From Candidatus Omnitrophota bacterium (GTDB lineage: Bacteria > Omnitrophota > Koll11 > Gygaellales > JAQTUY01): a DNA stretch of 19,651 bases. Location: assembly GCA_028707105.1 (NCBI GenBank), contig JAQTUY010000015.1:1-19651 (forward strand), in the 5' to 3' direction. Shown here piece by piece: positions 2,675 to 19,651 of this stretch (the stretch's first letter is position 1; the number at the start of each line of letters is the position of its first letter). Under the pieces are notes generated by a model. The model had not been told where the DNA came from, made no database searches, and was given only the letters and a program-made list of their open reading frames with translations. A program made the translations under genes and the position numbers.

Positions 2675-3097
2675 ATGTTAAATCCATGGTATATAACCGG
2701 CTTTTGCGACGGAGAAGCAGTATTTACCTATAGCAAAGCAGGAGGGACTTTCGGCCTGTATTTTGCTATTAAGCAAAAAGAGGACAACCGGCAGATCATA
2801 GAGGACATCCAGAGATATTTTAAATACCTAGGGACGATCTACCGTGGTAAAGAGGCTCAACCCGGCGCCTATTATCGTGTGACTAAAATAAGCGAGCTCA
2901 AGACGATAGTAGAGCATTTTGATAAGTATCCGCTGCAGAGCAAGAAAAAATTGGAAGCCTACAGGATTTGGCGCGAGATGGTAGTCTACAAATCGGAAAA
3001 TTACCGTGGCATAGATTATGACCGGCTTAGCGGCATGGCAGAAAAGCTTTCCAGCGTCGGCGCCCAGGGCCGCGTAAGAAAAGTGCATACTGTATAA
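2675..3097 (+). CDS. Single-motif LAGLIDADG-type homing endonuclease-like protein
   Basis: A 140-residue protein whose start, WYITGFCDGEAVF (residues 5-17), is a recognisable LAGLIDADG helix of the type usually written as W-x-x-G-F-x-D-G-E. Asp12 and Glu14 are in the metal-binding positions. The rest fits the small one-motif family: LYFAIKQKEDNRQIIEDIQRYF, then GTIYRG, YRVTKISELKTIVEHFDKYPL and KKKLEAYRIW. Such proteins act as homodimeric DNA endonucleases, and some have become maturases or regulators. It is free-standing, not inside an intron or intein. No clear ribosome binding site precedes its ATG. Its TAA shares a base with the parA ATG, so translation is probably coupled to parA. Whether it still cuts DNA is unknown. 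Confidence 0.8.
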   Translation: MLNPWYITGFCDGEAVFTYSKAGGTFGLYFAIKQKEDNRQIIEDIQRYFKYLGTIYRGKEAQPGAYYRVTKISELKTIVEHFDKYPLQSKKKLEAYRIWREMVVYKSENYRGIDYDRLSGMAEKLSSVGAQGRVRKVHTV

Positions 3098-7627: not shown

Positions 7628-8293
7628 ATGCCCGCTATAAGAAAAGAACTGAAAATTGAAGGACCGAATCTGTGGTATTTGGTTGGGTTGATTACCACAG
7701 ACGGCTGCTTGTCTTCAGATGGCAGGCATATTGATATAACCTCCAAGGATTCCGAATTTCTCGAGACCATTAAAAAGTCAACCGGGATCAGCAATAAAAT
7801 ATGCGCTAAATATAATGGTCAGAAGCAGCGGTATTTTCACATTGTGATTGGGAACAGAAATTTTTATGATTTTCTTTTATCCGTCGGGCTTACCCAAAGA
7901 AAGTCGCTAACATTGGGCGCCCTGATGATACCCGATAAGTATTTTATAGATTTTTTCAGGGGGTTGATTGATGGCGATGGATGCATACGGCGCTGGAGAC
8001 ACCCCTCCAATGGCAGAGAACAGTGGAGCATGAGAATATATTCCGGATCAAGAAATTTTTTAGCGTGGTTGGTCAAGCCCGTCAAGAAATTGTTACTGGT
8101 AAAAGGTAGAATCCATTCCCAAAACGAAGAGAGCACGTGTTTTGTTCTAAAATTCGGTAAAATGGCTGCGAGAATCATCGCGAAGGAATGTTATTATCAA
8201 GGCTGTTTAGGCCTTGAGAGAAAAATAAAATTAGCGCGGGAATGCTGTTTGTCTTCCGTGGGATGGCAGCGTAGTAAAACAGCTCTTAATTAG
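7628..8293 (+). CDS. Two-motif LAGLIDADG homing endonuclease
   Basis: A 221-residue protein with two LAGLIDADG helices, LVGLITTDG (18-26) and FRGLIDGDG (110-118), so it should act as a monomer with a pseudo-twofold fold. Asp25 and Asp117 occupy the metal-binding catalytic positions, so the active site appears intact. The C-terminal half contains MRIYSGSRNFLAWL and ends in KIKLARECCL, features common in free-standing enzymes of this class. The gene starts 9 bases after tRNA-Cys and ends 10 bases before tRNA-Leu. No ribosome binding site is visible and the composition is more AT-rich than the neighbouring housekeeping genes, consistent with a mobile gene inserted into a tRNA cluster. Its cleavage site is unknown; a neighbouring tRNA gene is a reasonable guess. 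Confidence 0.88.
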   Translation: MPAIRKELKIEGPNLWYLVGLITTDGCLSSDGRHIDITSKDSEFLETIKKSTGISNKICAKYNGQKQRYFHIVIGNRNFYDFLLSVGLTQRKSLTLGALMIPDKYFIDFFRGLIDGDGCIRRWRHPSNGREQWSMRIYSGSRNFLAWLVKPVKKLLLVKGRIHSQNEESTCFVLKFGKMAARIIAKECYYQGCLGLERKIKLARECCLSSVGWQRSKTALN

Positions 8294-8396: not shown

Positions 8397-8473
8397 GGGC
8401 CCATAGCTCAGTTGGTTAGAGCGTCACATTGACATTGTGAAGGTCAGAGGTTCGAGCCCCCTTGGGCCCACCA
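8397..8473 (+). tRNA. tRNA-Val (GAC)
   Basis: The acceptor arms GGGCCCA and TGGGCCC pair fully, the discriminator is A, and CCA is encoded (8471-8473). The D-arm is GCTC/GAGC. The anticodon stem is TCACA/TGTGA with the loop TTGACAT, giving GAC at 8431-8433. The T-loop is TTCGAGC; the T-stem AGAGG/CCCCT has one A-C mismatch in the middle (8448 opposite 8460). It lies just upstream of thrS. Confidence 0.93.
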
Positions 8474-8488
8474 TTTTTATAGCATGCG

Positions 8489-8507
8489 CTTTTTTGCGCG
8501 AAAAAAG
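8489..8507 (+). promoter_or_regulatory. Hairpin covering the thrS ribosome binding site
   Basis: CTTTTTT (8489-8495) can pair with AAAAAAG (8501-8507) around a GCGCG loop, partly hiding the AAGGA ahead of the thrS ATG. An alternative pairing, GCGC (8486-8489) with GCGC (8496-8499) around the T-run, would exclude the first and free the site. This may be a small translational switch, but it is short and could be chance. Confidence 0.35.
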
Positions 8508-8511
8508 GACT

Positions 8512-10251
8512 ATGGAATTAGATATATTACGGCACTCATGTTCTCACGTTTTAGCGCAGGCCGTGAAAAAACTCTGGCCTGATGTTTTGCTCGCGATCGG
8601 ACCCTCGATCGAGGACGGCTTTTATTACGACTTCGATAAAAAAGAGCCGTTTACCGATGAAGACTTGGCGAGCATCGAGAACGAGATGCGCCAGATCATC
8701 AAAAGAAATGAGCCTTTCATTCGCCAGGAGATGACTAAGGGCGAAGCAAAGGCGCTATTTGAAAAATTGGGCGAGAATTATAAGCTCGAGCTTATCCGCG
8801 ATATCCCCGACGAGAAAGTTTCGATTTATAAGACCGGAGGGGATTTTTTGGATCTCTGCCGCGGGCCACACATAGAGTCGACAGGCCAGATCAAGGCGTT
8901 TAAATTATTGTCGGTTGCCGGAGCTTACTGGCACGGGATTGAGACTAACCCGATGCTCCAAAGGATCTACGGCACGGCTTTTGAAAGCGTAAAGGAATTA
9001 GAAGAATACCTCAAGAATCTGGAAGAGGCCAAGAAGCGCGACCACCGTAAGCTCGGGCCTCAACTGGGATATTTTGATATGTATCAGGAGGAGGCCGGAG
9101 CCGGGCTTGTCTTTTATCATCCCAAAGGCGCGCTCCTTCGTAAGTTCCTGGAGGATTACGAAAAAGACGAGCACTTAAAACGCGGCTATCAGTTGGTGAT
9201 TACCCCAAATATAATGCAGGAGGGGCTCTGGCATACTTCGGGCCATTACGATTATTACCGCCAGAATATGTATGGAGTCAGCACTTTTGCGGAGGACCCA
9301 TCCGAGGCGCAGAAATTCATCTTAAAGCCGATGAATTGCCCTGGGCATATTTTGATATATAAATCCAAGAGCCACAGCTACAAGGAATTGCCGATCCGTT
9401 ATTTTGAGCTGGGCACGGTTTACCGCTATGAAAAGGCGGGCGTTTTGCACGGGCTTTTGCGGGTGCGCGGGTTTACCCAGGATGACGCGCATATATTCTG
9501 CCTGCCGGAACAGCTAAAAACGGAGATAAAAGGCATTATCGATTTTGTCTTTGATACCATGAAGGTTTTTGGATTTAATGACGTGGGAATTGAATTAAGC
9601 ACCCGTCCGGAAAAATCCATCGGCAGCGATGAAGATTGGCAGAGGGCTACGGACGCGCTGGAAGAATCACTGAAAGAAAAGGGCCTCCAGTATGAGATTA
9701 ACGCCGGCGACGGCGCTTTTTACGGGCCCAAGATCGATATTAAATTAAAGGACGCCCTGAACAGGAAATGGCAGTGCGCCACGATCCAGTGCGACTTTGC
9801 CCTTCCGCAGAGATTTAATCTCGCGTATGTTGACAGCGACGGCAAAGAAAAGCAGCCGATCATGCTTCACCGCGTCCTGCTCGGCAGTCTTGAGCGTTTT
9901 ATGGGGGCCTTGCTTGAGCAATACAAGGGGGCTCTTCCGGTCTGGCTTTCTCCGGTGCAGGTTGTGGTGATACCGGTCAAAGAGCAGGTCTATGAATACG
10001 CGGCCAGGATAAAAGAGCGCATGGATAAAGAGGGCCTGCGCGCGCAGGTAGATGACCGCAACGAGACATTGGGAAAGAGGATCCGCGAGGCTGAAGTGCA
10101 AAAAAGCCCGTATATCCTGGTGCTCGGCGAGCGCGAGGCGCAAGCCGGGACTGTGGCGGTGAGAAAAAGAGGAGAGGGTGATAAGGGAGCAATGGCCCTC
10201 GATGAATTTATAGATAAGATAAAGGATGAAATAACCAAAAAGACAACATAG
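8512..10251 (+). CDS. thrS: Threonyl-tRNA synthetase (without TGS domain)
   Basis: A 579-residue ThrRS that charges tRNA-Thr. It begins directly with the editing domain: HSCSH (8-12) and CRGPH (116-120) supply the HxxxH and Cys/His residues used to remove mischarged serine. The class II catalytic core follows, with MNCPGH (Cys276), TQDDAH (His327) and MLHRVLLGSLERF (His453) supplying the zinc ligands; motif 2 is RYFELGTVYRYEKAG. The anticodon-binding domain is at the end. The N-terminal TGS domain of the common form (about 60 residues) is missing, because tRNA-Val lies just upstream. I chose the ATG at 8512, since longer in-frame starts would run through the tRNA. It heads the conserved thrS-infC-rpmI-rplT group. 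Confidence 0.95.
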   Translation: MELDILRHSCSHVLAQAVKKLWPDVLLAIGPSIEDGFYYDFDKKEPFTDEDLASIENEMRQIIKRNEPFIRQEMTKGEAKALFEKLGENYKLELIRDIPDEKVSIYKTGGDFLDLCRGPHIESTGQIKAFKLLSVAGAYWHGIETNPMLQRIYGTAFESVKELEEYLKNLEEAKKRDHRKLGPQLGYFDMYQEEAGAGLVFYHPKGALLRKFLEDYEKDEHLKRGYQLVITPNIMQEGLWHTSGHYDYYRQNMYGVSTFAEDPSEAQKFILKPMNCPGHILIYKSKSHSYKELPIRYFELGTVYRYEKAGVLHGLLRVRGFTQDDAHIFCLPEQLKTEIKGIIDFVFDTMKVFGFNDVGIELSTRPEKSIGSDEDWQRATDALEESLKEKGLQYEINAGDGAFYGPKIDIKLKDALNRKWQCATIQCDFALPQRFNLAYVDSDGKEKQPIMLHRVLLGSLERFMGALLEQYKGALPVWLSPVQVVVIPVKEQVYEYAARIKERMDKEGLRAQVDDRNETLGKRIREAEVQKSPYILVLGEREAQAGTVAVRKRGEGDKGAMALDEFIDKIKDEITKKTT

Positions 10252-14117: not shown

Positions 14118-14825
14118 TTGTCAAAAAATTCCAAGAAGCCTTTGCAGCACCTCCTGCTGGAAGACGTTTACGCGATAAAAAGAAGCGGCAACCCCGATAA
14201 GCCTTTTGCTCCTAACGCGCGCTTCGGAGACCTGGAGGGCAGGACTTACCAGGAGATAGTCGAGATTTTTGAGAGCAGGATCTCCGGCTGGTATTTTGAC
14301 GTGGCCGAGGCGATATCCGACAAGATACCCGGGTATAATTTCGCGGTTATCATACTTAATAGTATTATTCTTGACCTGTTAAGCCAGTATATTTACGGCG
14401 CGCCCACCTCCAGCGAATCTATTTTCAAAAGGTTCTTCAGGGAATACCTGGGAGAATACAATCATAAAATAGAGCCGCCTATTGTGAGCTGCTATTTCAA
14501 TAAGCGAAGGCAGAAGTGGATGCGGGAAGTAACAAGGGACGTGGCCGACGGGTTTTACCATTGTTTCCGCTGCGGCGTGGTCCACGCGGCAGGCATACTT
14601 GAATACGGCCGGATCTCTTCCCGCTATCCTGGAGAAATAATCAAGGTCATCGACTGGGGGCAGGGGGCAAAGGAAATAAACGTTAACGCCATCGAGCTAT
14701 TGCGCAGGCTGCGCAGTATTTTTAACGCCTACATTGGGAAACTTAAGAGTAGCGAATTGATATTAAAGCATAACTTTATCGAGAAGTTCCAGATGGACTA
14801 CGGAGTGACAATAAAGCGCTGCTAA
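14118..14825 (+). CDS. Unknown protein with a HEPN-like R-x4-H motif
   Basis: A 235-residue, mostly helical protein that I do not recognise as a named family. FYHCFRCGVVHAAGIL (146-161) contains Arg151 and His156 spaced as R-x4-H, the active-site pattern of HEPN ribonuclease-type domains, and it lies in a predicted helix, as in HEPN proteins. A hydrophobic segment (75-92, FAVIILNSIILDLLSQY) may be a buried helix. The start is TTG at 14118 directly after the previous stop, with GGAG (14108-14111) six bases before it; no ATG is available until much further in. The HEPN link is inference from one motif. The giant signalling gene begins four bases downstream, which suggests a shared role. Confidence 0.6.
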   Translation: MSKNSKKPLQHLLLEDVYAIKRSGNPDKPFAPNARFGDLEGRTYQEIVEIFESRISGWYFDVAEAISDKIPGYNFAVIILNSIILDLLSQYIYGAPTSSESIFKRFFREYLGEYNHKIEPPIVSCYFNKRRQKWMREVTRDVADGFYHCFRCGVVHAAGILEYGRISSRYPGEIIKVIDWGQGAKEINVNAIELLRRLRSIFNAYIGKLKSSELILKHNFIEKFQMDYGVTIKRC

Positions 14826-14829
14826 ACTT

Positions 14830-17800
14830 ATGCTCGGTAAAACAGTAGCTAACCGCTATAAGATAACCGAAGAAATATCCCAGGATTCCCTCACTTTCCT
14901 CTGTAAGGCTCAAGATACCACCGAAAACAAACCCGTCTTCATCACCCTCTTAAAAGAAAAAGCCAGACAGCGCCCCCTGGAAACTTTGCTTCGTTTTAAA
15001 AGGGAACAGGAGCAGATCTCAAAACTAAATCACCCAAATCTTCTAAAAATCTACTCTCACGGCGAATTCGAAGGCCAAGATTACGTAGTCAGTGAATATT
15101 GCGAGTCCGAACCTCTCTCAAAGCTCTTGTTGCTGCCCCAAAACATCGGCCAGCCATTGCCGATAGATAGTGCCGTCGATATAATCCTTCAACTTTCGTC
15201 TGCTTTAGATGTCGCGCACCAAAGTACTATTCTGCACCAGGCACTTCAGCCCCAAAGCATCCTGATCACCCAGGATCTTAGAATGGTTAAACTTGCCAGC
15301 TTCGGCTATAACCTGTTGACAGATATAAGCCGTATCACCGAAAAAGAAGAAATTATCTCTACCTTCGGTTATCTCTCTCCAGAATCCTCAGGGATCCTGC
15401 GTAGGCCCATCGATGTGCGCTCTGATATTTACTCTTTAGGCATTATTTTTTACCGGTTCGTTACCGGAAGGCTTCCCTACACCGCCCCCGATATATCTAC
15501 TCTTATTCATGAGCATATAGCTCAAATACCGGATCCACCCTCTAAACTCAACAGCCAAATACCTCCGGTTATTGAGAATATCATTCTGCGCCTTATCGCC
15601 AAAGACCCCCAGGATAGATATCAGTCTTTATCCGGGCTGACCTTTGACTTGATGGAATACCAGAATCAGAGGTCAAGGGGCAAGCAACCGGTAGACTTTG
15701 AGATCGCCCGCTTCGATAAATTAAGACAGCTAACCTTTAATACCCGCCTTATCGGGCGTGATAAGGAACTTAACGTACTCAAGAGTCTGCTTGACCAGAC
15801 TAAGCAAGGCAAGGGTAGTCTTTGTTTTGTCTTCGGCGAACCCGGTATCGGAAAGTCCCGCCTGGTAGACGAACTTCGCGGTCACATTCATGGCCTCAAT
15901 GGGCTATTCTGCGGGGGCAAGTGCTACCAGTATGAATTCAGGACTCCCTATAAGGTCATCTCAGAGGCGGCAGATGCCTATATTGAAAAAATAAAGCGGC
16001 TATCACAGGAAGAACAACAAGAACATATCAAGCGGATAAAAGACGCCCTCGGCCAACTGGGGGGCGAGGTGGTTAAGGTGGCGCCCAACATCATTGACCT
16101 TATCGGTCAACCACCCAAGCTTGAGGAACTGGAGCCGGAAAAAGAAAAGATCAGATTTTTGATCACCATAACCAATTTTATAGCATCATTATCAACTTCT
16201 CAAGTCCCCCTGCTTATGTTTTTGGATGACCTGCAATGGGTAGATGACGGTAGTTTGGAGATATTGGAAAGAGTGGCGGAAAAACTTCAGAACATACCGG
16301 CTTTACTGATTGTGAGCTATCGTGACAACGAAGTAGACCAAAACCATCCGCTGGCGCAATTTATGAAGAGGCTGGCCGAGCAAAATATATCCTTAATGCA
16401 GATACCGGTTAAATCTTTCTCGCTTAACGAAACCGCCCAGATAATCTGTCAGATATTCCTTGAAAAGGAGGAACATGTCCTGCCATTGGCACAGGAGCTT
16501 CAGGAAAGAGCTAAGGGTAATCCCTTCTTTACCCTTGAGCTTTTGCATTCTTTGGTCGACGAGGGAGTAGTATCTTTAAAAGAAGAACATTATATTTACG
16601 ACTTAGATAAACTGAAGTCCGCAAGCCTGCCTACTACTATTGTCGATGCGGTTTTAAAGCGGATGAAAGACCTCTCAGTAGAGGAGCAGGAGATCATCTC
16701 TTATGCTTCGATAATGGGTAAAGAGATAGATTTTAAACTCTTGGCGGAATTATCCAATAAACAGACCGACACGATCCTGAGTTCCATAGAAGACGGCATC
16801 AAAAATCAGCTTCTCTTTAGGGATCTTACCGGCCAGGAAAACATCTTCTTTATGCATGACCGTATCAGGGAAGCTTTCTATAAGCGGGTATCCGAAGAGG
16901 ACCGCGTTCCGTTGCATAAGCATATTGCTGAAGTCCTGGAAGCACAGAATATAAAGGATCCTGGTCCGGTTTTATACGATCTGGCTTATCACTTTACGCA
17001 AGGCAAAGTAGAAGATAAAGCACTGCAATACGCCATACCCGCGGCCCATAAGGCCAAATCGTCTTATGCCAATGTTCTGGCAATAGAGCTTTTTAATTCC
17101 GCACGGGTGCTGTTAAAAAGGCTGCAGCAAACCCAAGGCCCGCAGTACATAGATGTATTGGAAAATTTAGGCGAGACATACCGATTGGCGGGAAGATTCG
17201 AGGAGTCGCTGGAGGCGCTGAAAACATGCGAGACTATTATTCCTGTAACGGATAAGCTTCATAAAGCCCAATTGTTGTCTAAAGAGGGGGAGACGCTATT
17301 TGAGAAAGGAGAGAAAGAAAACAGTATCAGGGCAATGGAGTCGGCCATTATGAATCTGGGAGAAAAGATCCCCAATAACATCATGACCATTATGTTGGGT
17401 GTAACGAAAGAATTCAGCATTCAGATGTTTCATACATGGTTCCCGAAATGGTTAGTGAGAGATGAGTATGTGGGCACATCTACGGACTTGGCTATCTTGA
17501 AACTCTATGCCATATTGGCCCGAGTCTATTACTTTGTCGATATTTATAAGGCCTTTTATTTTTTTCTAAAGGGGCTGAATAAAGGGGAAAAAATAGGGCC
17601 CTGTCCGGAACTTGCGCTCAATTATATAATGGGAATTCCTGTTTGGTCGACATTTCCGTGGGTAAGCCGCGCTTTTAGGGATGGGAATAAAGGCATAAAA
17701 ATGGCCCAGGATTTTGGCGATAAGAGAAAGGAAGGCACTGGTTGGGCCTATCTCGTTTACGGTTCCTACATCGCCAATAAAACCAAGCAGGGTGTTGATT

Positions 17801-19651
17801 ATGCCCCGAAAGCAATAAATCTGCTTAAAGGAGCCGGTGAATACTGGGATCTTGGAGTAGCTTTCGCTTTCAGGAATCATAGCAGCTGGGTAATGGGAAG
17901 GCTAAAAGAATATATTATTGAAGTGGAAGAATTTATAAAAATCGCCAAGGAAGCCAAGGTGCTGCAAAACTTTGGCTGGGGATTGGGTGAACGGAGTAAG
18001 TTATGGGCTTTGATCGGAGAGATAAACGAGGGCACTATTAGTGATATGAAGGAATGTATTGAACTTATGCAAAAGACCGGGGATTATTCTAATGTGCCGT
18101 ATTTTAAGTCTAGGCTGGCATTTGTTTATTTAAGAGCCGGCGATTATGAAAAAGCCATTGGAGAGACAGAAGAAGCAATAAAATTATTCCCTAATCCATA
18201 TATGCAAGGAGCTTGGGTGGCGGATGTTTTTGCCCTGGGCGCTCAGGTATATCTTGATGCCATAGTTAATATTTTGGGGCTTTCCAAAGACAAAAAGAAG
18301 CAATATATCAAGAGGGCGAGGTGGCTTTGTTTTAGATCCAGCATATTTTCGATTTTATTTAAATACTTTCTTGGTTGGTCTTATCAAGTCAATGGCACGT
18401 ATTTATGGCTGGTAGGCAAAAAAGGGAAAGCCATCAAAACTCTGGAGCGTGGTATTAGATTCTTGAGGGAGCATATTGAGGATAATAAGTATCGTTTAGC
18501 CTATATCCTCCTGGAGGAAGCCAAATTCTTACTTTCAGACAACCCCAAAGACAAAAAAGCCTACTCTAACCTGATAGAGGCAAGGGATCTCTTTACCGAG
18601 ATGGGCTGTAAATTAGACCTGGATACTGCCAATAAGCTCCTGGAATCCATCTCACCCGAAGGCATATCAGTAGACTCCCGTACCGTGCTTACCCAGAAGC
18701 GCCATCTGGATTCTCTACTCTCCGTAACCCAGGCCATCGGCTCGATCTTTATCCTGGATGAGCTGCTCCAGAAGATCCTGGAATACGGCCTGAAGGTAAC
18801 CGGAGCTGAAAGAGGCTTTTTGCTGCTCTACGACCAGGCTAAGAACCTCTCTTTAAAAGTCTCCTCCAACCTGGAAAAAGACCTCCAAGGCCTATCCTTT
18901 TCCTATGAGAACTACAAATTATCTCTTGAGCTTATCAATGAAGTCCAGAATTCTAAAGCTGCTGTTATTGCCGGCCAAGATACCGCATCCACTTCTAAAA
19001 TCTCAACCGAGCTCAAAACCTTCTCTGTCAAACAAGCCATCGCCGTACCCCTGCAGACCAGGGATAAGCCTATAGGTATCCTCTATATGGATAACAGATT
19101 AGCCGGAGGTACCTTCGGCAAGGATGAACTGGAGCTGATGAAAGGCTTTGCGGTCCAGGCTTCAGTCTCGATCGAGAACGCTTTCCTGGTCTCAAGCTTA
19201 GTTGAACAGGAAAGATTAAAACAAGAGCTAGAGCTGGGCAGGCAGATCCAGGAAAGCCTCCTGCCCAAAGAAAGCCCTAACTTGCCTAACCTAAAGCTCA
19301 TCGGCACCATGCTCCCGGCCAAGGAGATAGGCGGTGACTACTATGACTTCGTTATTCCGGAAATGGGGTCAGACCCAATTTCCCAGGCTATTTCCTCTGT
19401 AGGTATTGTCATCGGTGACGTCTCTGGCAAAGGCGTAGCCGCAGGCTTACTTATGGCCATGGCCAAGACCGCTATCCATACCCTCTCCCAGGAAGAGACC
19501 TCTCCTAAACAAATACTACTCAGGACTAACCAGATCCTGGTCAAGCACATCGGCGCCCAGAAGTTCATGACCATGCTCTACTTCAGGTATGATACTCAAA
19601 CCAAGACCTTAACCTACTCCTCAGCCGGACATGAGCATATCCTTATATATA
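14830..19651 (+). CDS. Giant pseudokinase-ATPase-GAF-SpoIIE-type phosphatase (3' end outside window)
   Basis: An uninterrupted frame of at least 1607 residues that leaves the window. Residues 1-280 have a Ser/Thr kinase fold (LSPE, SDIYSLG), but the VAIK lysine is Thr39, HRD is HQA (136-138), the catalytic-loop Lys and Asn are Gln140 and Ser143, DFG is SFG (157-159), and the glycine loop is lost. Next comes an NTPase with Walker A FGEPGIGKS (335-343) and Walker B LMFLDDLQW (462-470), as in STAND-like regulators. A long helical-repeat region (about 700-1280) follows, then a GAF domain (about 1290-1465), a coiled linker, and a PP2C/SpoIIE-type phosphatase with GGDYYD (1501-1506), GDVSGKG (1529-1535) and SAGHEH. 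The protein probably senses a ligand, uses ATP, and controls a Ser/Thr phosphatase in a partner-switching manner. Confidence 0.88.
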   Translation, partial: MLGKTVANRYKITEEISQDSLTFLCKAQDTTENKPVFITLLKEKARQRPLETLLRFKREQEQISKLNHPNLLKIYSHGEFEGQDYVVSEYCESEPLSKLLLLPQNIGQPLPIDSAVDIILQLSSALDVAHQSTILHQALQPQSILITQDLRMVKLASFGYNLLTDISRITEKEEIISTFGYLSPESSGILRRPIDVRSDIYSLGIIFYRFVTGRLPYTAPDISTLIHEHIAQIPDPPSKLNSQIPPVIENIILRLIAKDPQDRYQSLSGLTFDLMEYQNQRSRGKQPVDFEIARFDKLRQLTFNTRLIGRDKELNVLKSLLDQTKQGKGSLCFVFGEPGIGKSRLVDELRGHIHGLNGLFCGGKCYQYEFRTPYKVISEAADAYIEKIKRLSQEEQQEHIKRIKDALGQLGGEVVKVAPNIIDLIGQPPKLEELEPEKEKIRFLITITNFIASLSTSQVPLLMFLDDLQWVDDGSLEILERVAEKLQNIPALLIVSYRDNEVDQNHPLAQFMKRLAEQNISLMQIPVKSFSLNETAQIICQIFLEKEEHVLPLAQELQERAKGNPFFTLELLHSLVDEGVVSLKEEHYIYDLDKLKSASLPTTIVDAVLKRMKDLSVEEQEIISYASIMGKEIDFKLLAELSNKQTDTILSSIEDGIKNQLLFRDLTGQENIFFMHDRIREAFYKRVSEEDRVPLHKHIAEVLEAQNIKDPGPVLYDLAYHFTQGKVEDKALQYAIPAAHKAKSSYANVLAIELFNSARVLLKRLQQTQGPQYIDVLENLGETYRLAGRFEESLEALKTCETIIPVTDKLHKAQLLSKEGETLFEKGEKENSIRAMESAIMNLGEKIPNNIMTIMLGVTKEFSIQMFHTWFPKWLVRDEYVGTSTDLAILKLYAILARVYYFVDIYKAFYFFLKGLNKGEKIGPCPELALNYIMGIPVWSTFPWVSRAFRDGNKGIKMAQDFGDKRKEGTGWAYLVYGSYIANKTKQGVDYAPKAINLLKGAGEYWDLGVAFAFRNHSSWVMGRLKEYIIEVEEFIKIAKEAKVLQNFGWGLGERSKLWALIGEINEGTISDMKECIELMQKTGDYSNVPYFKSRLAFVYLRAGDYEKAIGETEEAIKLFPNPYMQGAWVADVFALGAQVYLDAIVNILGLSKDKKKQYIKRARWLCFRSSIFSILFKYFLGWSYQVNGTYLWLVGKKGKAIKTLERGIRFLREHIEDNKYRLAYILLEEAKFLLSDNPKDKKAYSNLIEARDLFTEMGCKLDLDTANKLLESISPEGISVDSRTVLTQKRHLDSLLSVTQAIGSIFILDELLQKILEYGLKVTGAERGFLLLYDQAKNLSLKVSSNLEKDLQGLSFSYENYKLSLELINEVQNSKAAVIAGQDTASTSKISTELKTFSVKQAIAVPLQTRDKPIGILYMDNRLAGGTFGKDELELMKGFAVQASVSIENAFLVSSLVEQERLKQELELGRQIQESLLPKESPNLPNLKLIGTMLPAKEIGGDYYDFVIPEMGSDPISQAISSVGIVIGDVSGKGVAAGLLMAMAKTAIHTLSQEETSPKQILLRTNQILVKHIGAQKFMTMLYFRYDTQTKTLTYSSAGHEHILIY

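What the first reader, a model, noticed from the sequence alone, without database searches (positions are those of the whole stretch)
14830..15700. Kinase domain with every catalytic residue replaced (pseudokinase) on a giant phosphatase protein
The kinase fold is recognisable (LNHPNLLKIY, YLSPE, SDIYSLG), but the VAIK Lys is Thr39, HRD is HQA, the catalytic-loop Lys and Asn are Gln140 and Ser143, DFG is SFG, and the glycine loop is gone. The replacements hit exactly the active site while the scaffold is kept, which argues for selection as a non-catalytic sensor or docking domain. It is fused to a STAND-like ATPase, GAF and SpoIIE-type phosphatase, so signalling may run from the ligand-sensing domains to the phosphatase without any kinase activity.
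Basis: partly seen in the sequence, partly recalled or inferred. Interest (0 to 1): 0.75.

Follow-up and report, generated by a model that had tools for sequence, protein, structure and literature searches.

The report
Dead kinase domain on STAND–phosphatase receptor
A bacterial signalling protein, probably from an uncultured Omnitrophota bacterium, carries a protein-kinase domain whose ATP site is destroyed but whose fold and one face are kept; the same dead domain recurs across related proteins with different outputs, so it probably works as a docking or gating part.

Summary
Residues 1-285 of a 1607-aa ORF cut by the contig end form a kinase fold with G-loop SQDS, Thr39, HQA, Gln140, Ser143 and SFG. 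"Every catalytic residue" is overstated: αC Glu59, the HRD His, the F and G of DFG, the APE Glu and the αF Asp remain. AlphaFold2 gives a confident PknB-like fold (pLDDT 92.2).
It is not recent decay. On a kinase-only tree without the catalytic columns, 51 proteins lacking the HRD Asp form one clade (SH-aLRT 95) across several phyla, with SpoIIE, histidine-kinase or no output. ATP-site positions lost conservation while the post-APE loop and αG helix gained it (His229 in 53 of 53). An acid replaces the second G-loop Gly in 68 of 92 degraded relatives and 0 of 190 intact ones.
Best reading: a non-catalytic docking or gating domain for the STAND ATPase, which drives the attached output. The docking step is inferred; no assay, coordinates or partner were seen.
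The kind is known: CP1 bacterial kinases are about 40% pseudokinases, those linked to a COG3899 ATPase (PMC12599244). I found no earlier description of this clade, its G-loop Asp, sensor-only proteins or interchangeable outputs.

The parts
14830..19650 (+). ORF of the whole protein, 1607 aa seen, cut by the contig end (full-length SpoIIE relatives are about 1700 aa)
14830..15684 (+). pseudokinase domain, residues 1-285
   Evidence: Pfam, PDB sequence match, AF2 model, Foldseek
14878..14895 (+). degenerate glycine loop SQDSLT (17-22), with Asp19 at the second glycine position
14944..14946 (+). Thr39 at the VAIK lysine position
15235..15258 (+). HQALQPQS (136-143) in place of HRDLKPxN
15298..15306 (+). 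SFG (157-159) in place of DFG
15391..15414 (+). post-APE loop GILRRPID (188-195), the segment that gained most conservation in the pseudokinase clade
15493..15525 (+). alphaG helix ISTLIHEHIAQ (222-232) with clade-invariant His229
15745..16311 (+). AAA_16 STAND-type ATPase, residues 306-494
   Evidence: Pfam E 4e-29; Walker A Lys342 kept in 54 of 54
15832..15861 (+). Walker A FGEPGIGKSR
17080..18210 (+). TPR region, most variable part of the protein
18550..18621 (+). module junction (residues 1241-1264): identity to P0098, P0004 and P0008 has risen to 95-100% here and stays high, and five sensor-only relatives end at 1264
18754..19179 (+). GAF domain
   Evidence: Pfam GAF_3 E 3.1e-12
19396..19650 (+). 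SpoIIE/PP2C phosphatase domain, truncated by the contig end; GGDYYD, GDVSGKG and SAGH present

Best explanation
A catalytically dead kinase domain, kept for a non-catalytic job in a STAND-type signalling protein. Steps. (1) Shown from sequence: the ATP site is dismantled (G-loop, Lys39, Asp138, Asn143, Asp157) while the fold and core C-lobe residues are kept, and loss of the HRD Asp is old and shared by one clade. (2) Inferred: the domain cannot transfer phosphate. Asp at the second G-loop glycine would repel ATP phosphates, much as VRK3's G-loop Asp is argued to do. (3) Inferred: its newly constrained post-APE/alphaG face docks either a partner protein or the protein's own STAND/TPR body and so gates the ATPase. 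(4) Inferred from the family: TPRs and GAF read the signal, the intact P-loop ATPase switches state and assembles, and the output domain (SpoIIE phosphatase here, histidine kinase in others) is turned on. In this copy the output would be dephosphorylation of a phospho-Ser/Thr target, probably a STAS-type anti-anti-sigma factor (recalled from RsbU/SpoIIE).
For: 51 proteins without HRD Asp (the window's included) are one group on kinase columns with catalytic positions removed, SH-aLRT 95; the clade is also seen on kinase+AAA columns (54 rows, support 99; 53 of 54 lack the Asp). Compared without choosing rows by their catalytic state (53 clade rows, 151 sister rows), ATP-site positions lose conservation even with 39/138/157 left out (mean -1.06 bits, Mann-Whitney p 0.001), the post-APE loop ranks 273/273 and alphaG 265/270 for gain, and His229 is 53/53 against 24/151 in the sister clade. 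D/E at position 19: 68 of 92 degraded, 0 of 190 intact. VRK3 precedent (passages of PMC2639636). Walker A Lys 54/54, Walker B Asp-Asp 51/54; of 24 SpoIIE members 15 match all five motif patterns and 23 the first two. The pseudokinase is kept with SpoIIE, histidine-kinase or no output.
Against: No partner, ligand, assay or coordinates. 19 of 53 clade members keep Lys39 and 17 of 53 keep the DFG Asp, so some relatives might still bind nucleotide. The P+1/APE stretch (177-187) also lost conservation (rank 19/270, 35/270), so not every part of the C-lobe face is kept. The link between G-loop Asp and degradation is not shown to be independent of kinship: 3.8 same-way against 0 opposite pairs, median p 0.125; paired with HRD-Asp loss alone (2.9 against 1.9) or Lys39 loss alone (2.7 against 1.1) there is no clear association. 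With controls matched for conservation and unselected rows, only 4 ATP-site positions remain and p is 0.05. Neither neighbouring genes nor a STAS partner could be examined, because no genome is held.
Confidence: 0.6

Rival explanations
1. The domain has swapped chemistry rather than lost it: the pocket binds a nucleotide in another way and performs AMPylation, glutamylation or similar, as SelO and SidJ do.
For: Asp19 is nearly fixed in the clade (45 of 53) and His136, Phe158 and Gly159 are kept, so the pocket is not drifting freely at every position. The review reports new activities in bacterial pseudokinases (section 4 of PMC12599244).
Against: No basic residue is conserved at the two lysine positions of the pocket: 39 is K/R/Q/S/T/A and others, 140 is N/Q/K/S/R. 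The alphaC Glu, Asn143 and DFG Asp vary too. In SidJ the ATP- and metal-binding residues are repurposed but present (PMC12599244).
Confidence: 0.07
2. It is an allosteric partner, substrate or decoy for a separate active kinase: the pseudokinase binds that kinase in trans, and phosphorylation of its activation segment or a change in docking opens the STAND switch.
For: The C-lobe surface that gains constraint (alphaG) is the one PknB uses to dock GarA (recalled; the PknB-GarA complex 6i2p is the top fold match). Related proteins with intact kinases exist, including in Omnitrophota (P0284, P0300, P0301, P0315).
Against: No partner kinase could be looked for: no genome is held. Intramolecular gating explains the same conservation.
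Confidence: 0.2
3. Recent decay of a dispensable kinase domain in this copy only.
For: Several losses are single rows on the wider tree (P0320, P0296, P0208), so loss does recur in this superfamily.
Against: The window copy sits in a 31-row clade of which 29 lack all three residues (the window gene counts twice, as Q and P0001); the fold is predicted with high confidence; many C-lobe positions are invariant; the ORF is open.
Confidence: 0.02
4. It is simply another CP1-type bacterial STK of the published classification and adds nothing beyond a record.
For: CP1 pseudokinases are described as linked to a COG3899 ATPase, often with GAF (FhlA) or PAS, without transmembrane regions, and about 40% of CP1 kinases are degraded (section 10 of PMC12599244).
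Against: In my trees the cyanobacterial and rhizobial proteins of this architecture that I sampled form a separate group from the window's clade, and that section names cyanobacteria, proteobacteria and Leptospira, no SpoIIE output and no Omnitrophota. The defining residue patterns of CP1 could not be applied here.
Confidence: 0.35

Closest known systems
CP1 family of bacterial Ser/Thr kinases (PMC12599244)
   Same: Kinase domain with one or more catalytic motifs lost, fused to a predicted ATPase and often a GAF domain; no transmembrane regions (no clear one here).
   Different: Here a separate clade by my trees, SpoIIE or histidine-kinase output, uncultured phyla, near-fixed G-loop Asp; the review describes mixed, partial degradation.
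DLHK pseudokinases (PMC12599244)
   Same: Pseudokinase family close to CP1 with lost ATP and metal motifs.
   Different: DLHK keeps the HRD Asp and is often linked to helicase domains; this clade lacks the HRD Asp.
VRK3 (eukaryotic pseudokinase, PMC2639636)
   Same: Degraded catalytic site on a well kept fold; acidic residue in the G-loop argued to hinder ATP binding.
   Different: No common function known; VRK3's Asp175 appears to lie one position before the equivalent of Asp19 (my reading) and is not well conserved, whereas Asp19 is near-fixed here.
TOMM kinase/cyclase fusion (TIGR03903)
   Same: Shares the ATPase core: 213 bits, best stretch residues 304-767.
   Different: Far below the 705.75-bit cut-off; Pfam finds no cyclase here.
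Plant NLR with pseudokinase adaptors (ZAR1-ZED1)
   Same: Pseudokinase paired with a STAND ATPase switch.
   Different: Separate proteins in plants; analogy only, taken from the start of an abstract (PMC6634424) and recall.

Membership tests
Pseudokinase (loss of beta3 Lys, HRD Asp and/or DFG Asp) | At least one of the three residues replaced | tested here: met
   T39, A138, S157
Pseudokinase (loss of beta3 Lys, HRD Asp and/or DFG Asp) | No phosphotransfer in an assay | not testable with these tools
   Needs purified protein
CP1 bSTK family | Linked to a COG3899 predicted ATPase | tested here: inconclusive
   AAA_16 (PF13191) E 4e-29 follows the kinase; the COG3899 model itself is not in the libraries used
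CP1 bSTK family | No transmembrane segment | tested here: inconclusive
   Highest 19-residue Kyte-Doolittle mean is 1.71, at residue 1133 just past the TPR match, borderline (the membrane-protein control in that script failed)
CP1 bSTK family | GAF/FhlA or PAS domain often present | tested here: met
   GAF_3 E 3.1e-12
CP1 bSTK family | Family residue pattern (constraints) of the classification | not testable with these tools
   The authors' models are not held; the primary paper did not turn up in the searches
CP1 bSTK family | Groups with cyanobacterial/proteobacterial CP1 members | tested here: inconclusive
   Cyanobacterial and rhizobial proteins of this architecture fall outside the window's clade, but none of them is labelled CP1 by any search
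TOMM_kin_cyc TIGR03903 | Score over the curated cut-off | tested here: not met
   213.3 bits against 705.75
PASTA kinase NF033483 | Score over the curated cut-off | tested here: not met
   201.8 bits against 450
STAND/AAA_16 ATPase | Walker A and B motifs | tested here: met
   GEPGIGKS; Lys342 54 of 54, Asp466-Asp467 51 of 54
SpoIIE/RsbU PP2C phosphatase | All metal-binding motifs | tested here: inconclusive
   The first three of five patterns match; the rest lies beyond the contig end
PADLOC PD-T4-6 and other defence kinases | Whole-protein match, not the kinase domain alone | tested here: not met
   The 25 of 34 matches that are listed for the window protein all fall within residues 1-313

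The most novel reading that the evidence does not exclude
A bacterial network built like an NLR immune network: sensor-only proteins (pseudokinase-STAND-TPR, ending at the module junction) co-assemble with output-bearing paralogues through their shared STAND and pseudokinase parts. The dead kinase is the recognition or docking face, like ZAR1's pseudokinase adaptors but fused in cis, and recombination at the junction keeps a common output module on fast-changing sensors.
Probability: 0.15. Interest if true: 0.8.

Novelty: new variant of a known kind. Interest (0 to 1): 0.5.

Why it matters
A 2025 review calls bacterial pseudokinases largely unexplored experimentally (abstract of PMC12599244). 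This clade gives a testable case: one apparent origin, a suggested order of losses (HRD Asp and the G-loop glycine first; Lys39 and the DFG Asp later in parts of the clade, assuming no regain), a named face of new constraint (post-APE loop and αG, His229), and natural versions with a phosphatase, a histidine kinase or no output. The G-loop acid may be a simple sequence flag for degraded kinases of this architecture, since none of the 190 intact ones sampled carries it.

Tried and rejected
Recent decay was rejected. A kinase-phosphatase antagonist pair on one chain was set aside, because the dead domain is kept with histidine-kinase and no-output forms. A claim that pocket loss is proven by the first test was toned down: the compared sets had been chosen by their catalytic residues, so repeats the comparison on unselected clades without positions 39, 138 and 157. 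A claim that G-loop Asp evolves together with inactivation is left as a correlation.

Led nowhere: the whole genome (not held), so no neighbours, paralogue count or STAS partner. Viral contigs gave 5 loci, best segments 25-29% identity; plasmids gave 1073 records, every best place under 60% identity. The 50 Foldseek rows listed for the 820-aa model are kinases and say nothing about the STAND part, and sequence search of that part in the PDB gave one match at E 0.079. Rfam at gathering scores found only three tRNAs. The model's coordinates are not exposed, so the pocket was not inspected in 3D.

Full report
What is there. The ORF 14830-19650 (+) encodes 1607 residues and is cut by the contig end. 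Pfam finds Pkinase (E 1.3e-26), AAA_16 (4e-29), TPRs, GAF_3 (3.1e-12) and SpoIIE positions 4-88 of 192 (2.7e-24). The nearest solved kinases by sequence are StkP and PknB. AlphaFold2 on a 46-row alignment gives pLDDT 92.2 and pTM 0.91 for residues 1-302; Foldseek ranks PknB first, E 2.9e-24. The kept features are αC Glu59, His136, Phe158, Gly159, Glu185 and Asp199.

Relatives. Three protein searches passed 1156, 1716 and 5588 proteins and each listed its best 120; only about 8000 candidates were scored. Only the listed ones, 323 different proteins, were used, so the fractions below describe this sample and not nature. With the window protein that is 324, of which 282 have an N-terminal kinase plus AAA by my profile and 42 were dropped (named). 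P0001 matches the window's protein at 100% and is taken as the same gene from another record, so that gene counts twice in the 282 and in the 54-row clade. Of the 282, 190 keep Lys39, Asp138 and Asp157, 92 lack at least one and 34 lack all three.

One old clade. FastTree on kinase and AAA columns without catalytic columns puts the window in a 31-row clade (support 94), all without the HRD Asp and 29 without any of the three residues, inside a 54-row clade (support 99) of which 53 lack the HRD Asp. The exception, P0047, leaves that clade when only kinase columns are used and pairs with P0295, so its kinase domain was probably exchanged. In that tree (88 rows: 52 of the 54, P0001 and P0022 left out, plus 36 that I chose from outside) the other 51 clade members are one group, SH-aLRT 95; the search was the short one, without bootstrap. 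Source names for members include Omnitrophota, Nitrospirota, Thermodesulfobacteriota, Verrucomicrobiae and Kiritimatiellae; many have none. Losses also occur elsewhere: the HRD Asp needs at least 12 changes over all 282 rows. Within the clade, all 7 rows of the Verrucomicrobiae/Kiritimatiellae-type group keep Lys39 and 3 of them the DFG Asp, and most of the P0026-P0035 group keep both, so those two residues probably went later.

Where constraint moved. A first comparison (53 clade rows without HRD Asp against 134 intact sister rows) showed eleven ATP-site invariants losing 1.6 bits on average while seven other invariants did not move on average (p 3.7e-6; against equally conserved positions p 0.002). 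Since rows had been chosen by catalytic state, I repeated it on unselected clades (53 against 151 rows) without positions 39, 138 and 157: the mean change is -1.06 bits, p 0.001; limited to positions well conserved in the sister clade only four ATP-site positions remain and p is 0.05. In the same call the G-loop ranks 5/275 and the catalytic loop 5/269 for loss, the post-APE loop 273/273 and αG 265/270 for gain. The P+1/APE stretch lost some conservation as well (35/270, 19/270). His229 is 53 of 53 in the clade and 24 of 151 in the sister; Arg191 47 of 53 against 15 of 151; Pro193 48 of 53 against 41 of 151.

G-loop acid. The second glycine (position 19) is Asp or Glu in 68 of the 92 degraded proteins and in 0 of the 190 intact ones. 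It occurs in this clade (45 Asp and 1 Glu of 53 rows), in AraC-output proteins and in part of the rhizobial group (motifs). Tree-aware pairing with loss of any catalytic residue goes the same way in 3.8 pairs and never the other way, but is too small for significance (median p 0.125); paired with HRD-Asp loss alone (2.9 against 1.9) or Lys39 loss alone (2.7 against 1.1) there is no clear association. In VRK3 a G-loop Asp is described as mimicking a phosphate in an acidic pocket likely to repel ATP (passages of PMC2639636).

The rest of the machine. Walker A Lys342 is kept in 54 of 54 and the Walker B Asp pair in 51 of 54. Of the 24 SpoIIE members, 15 match all five motif patterns, 3 are cut short (the window protein among them), and 6 miss one or more; P0126 matches only the last pattern (the patterns are mine and recalled). 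Outputs in the 54-row clade are 24 SpoIIE, 13 histidine kinase (12 plus P0041 by its Pfam list) and 17 without output or cut. Five of these 17 (P0005, P0006, P0007, P0009, P0010) end at exactly the same aligned place, residue 1264, with differing last residues; they form one group, SH-aLRT 93, so the sensor-only form looks real. P0005/P0009 and P0006/P0007 report the same longest contig length, which suggests neighbours on one contig but does not prove it.

Mosaic outputs. Against P0098, P0004 and P0008 the window protein is 35-51% identical in the 80-residue windows from 801 to 1200 but 82-100% identical in those of GAF and SpoIIE; against P0003 or P0011 the same GAF-SpoIIE stretch is only 57-79%. 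The rise lies at residues 1221-1241, just before the end of the sensor-only forms; P0002 and P0003 are also 90-100% there, so the junction itself is conserved. P0122/P0123 show the same pattern: 91-100% in the last four blocks of 100 columns, 46-78% before. Over 820 pairs of clade proteins (P0098 added), GAF identity minus STAND identity has median 4.4 and sd 8.8; window-P0004 (GAF 99, STAND 71) is second from the top, window-P0098 is not among the 14 shown, and some top pairs differ in STAND rather than in output, so exchange may touch several modules. I read this as homogenisation or exchange of modules; no DNA of the relatives was available. P0098 may come from the same organism (no source shown), which is inference, and repeated output modules would also explain why the contig breaks here.

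Comparison with the known. The review PMC12599244 (outline and abstract, sections 4, 10 and 14 and passages read) describes CP1: about 40% pseudokinases, which are linked to COG3899 and often carry GAF or PAS, mainly in cyanobacteria and proteobacteria. 'Omnitrophota', 'TPR' and 'AAA' do not occur in its text. PMC1262709 (passages) counted prokaryotic kinases without the catalytic Asp in 2005 and noted a kinase-SpoIIE fusion in Pseudomonas. My searches for this clade in print showed no paper on it among the listed rows; one search matched 347 papers and listed 15, none of which holds 'pseudokinase'. Most subscription journals are not in that library.

Verdict. The docking or gating role and the NLR-like network are inference.

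Noticed in passing
window 2675-3097 and 7628-8293 (+): Two free-standing LAGLIDADG ORFs (PF00961, PF14528), one between yidC and a parA-like gene, one between tRNA-Cys and tRNA-Leu; Rfam at gathering scores shows no intron.
   Followed up: partly
window 14118-14825 (+): 235-aa protein with no Pfam, NCBIfam or PADLOC match, ending 4 bases before the pseudokinase gene; its start codon is uncertain.
   Followed up: partly
window 8397-8473 and 8437-10251 (+): The listed GTG start of the threonyl-tRNA synthetase-like ORF lies inside the tRNA-Val gene, so the real start is probably further downstream.
   Followed up: no
P0122/P0123 and P0126/P0127: Pairs of pseudokinase-SpoIIE proteins with the same longest contig length (19908 and 235363 bases), perhaps neighbours; the first pair shares a near-identical C end, the second does not.
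   Followed up: partly
P0089, P0092, P0095, P0099, P0100: AraC-output relatives that lost Lys39 and the DFG Asp but keep HRD, with G-loop WEDA: another degraded group of this architecture.
   Followed up: no
G001 (genome of L001, titled a Myxococcales MAG): One 8.7-Mb genome gave 152 matches to P0003, most of the listed ones to its kinase region.
   Followed up: no
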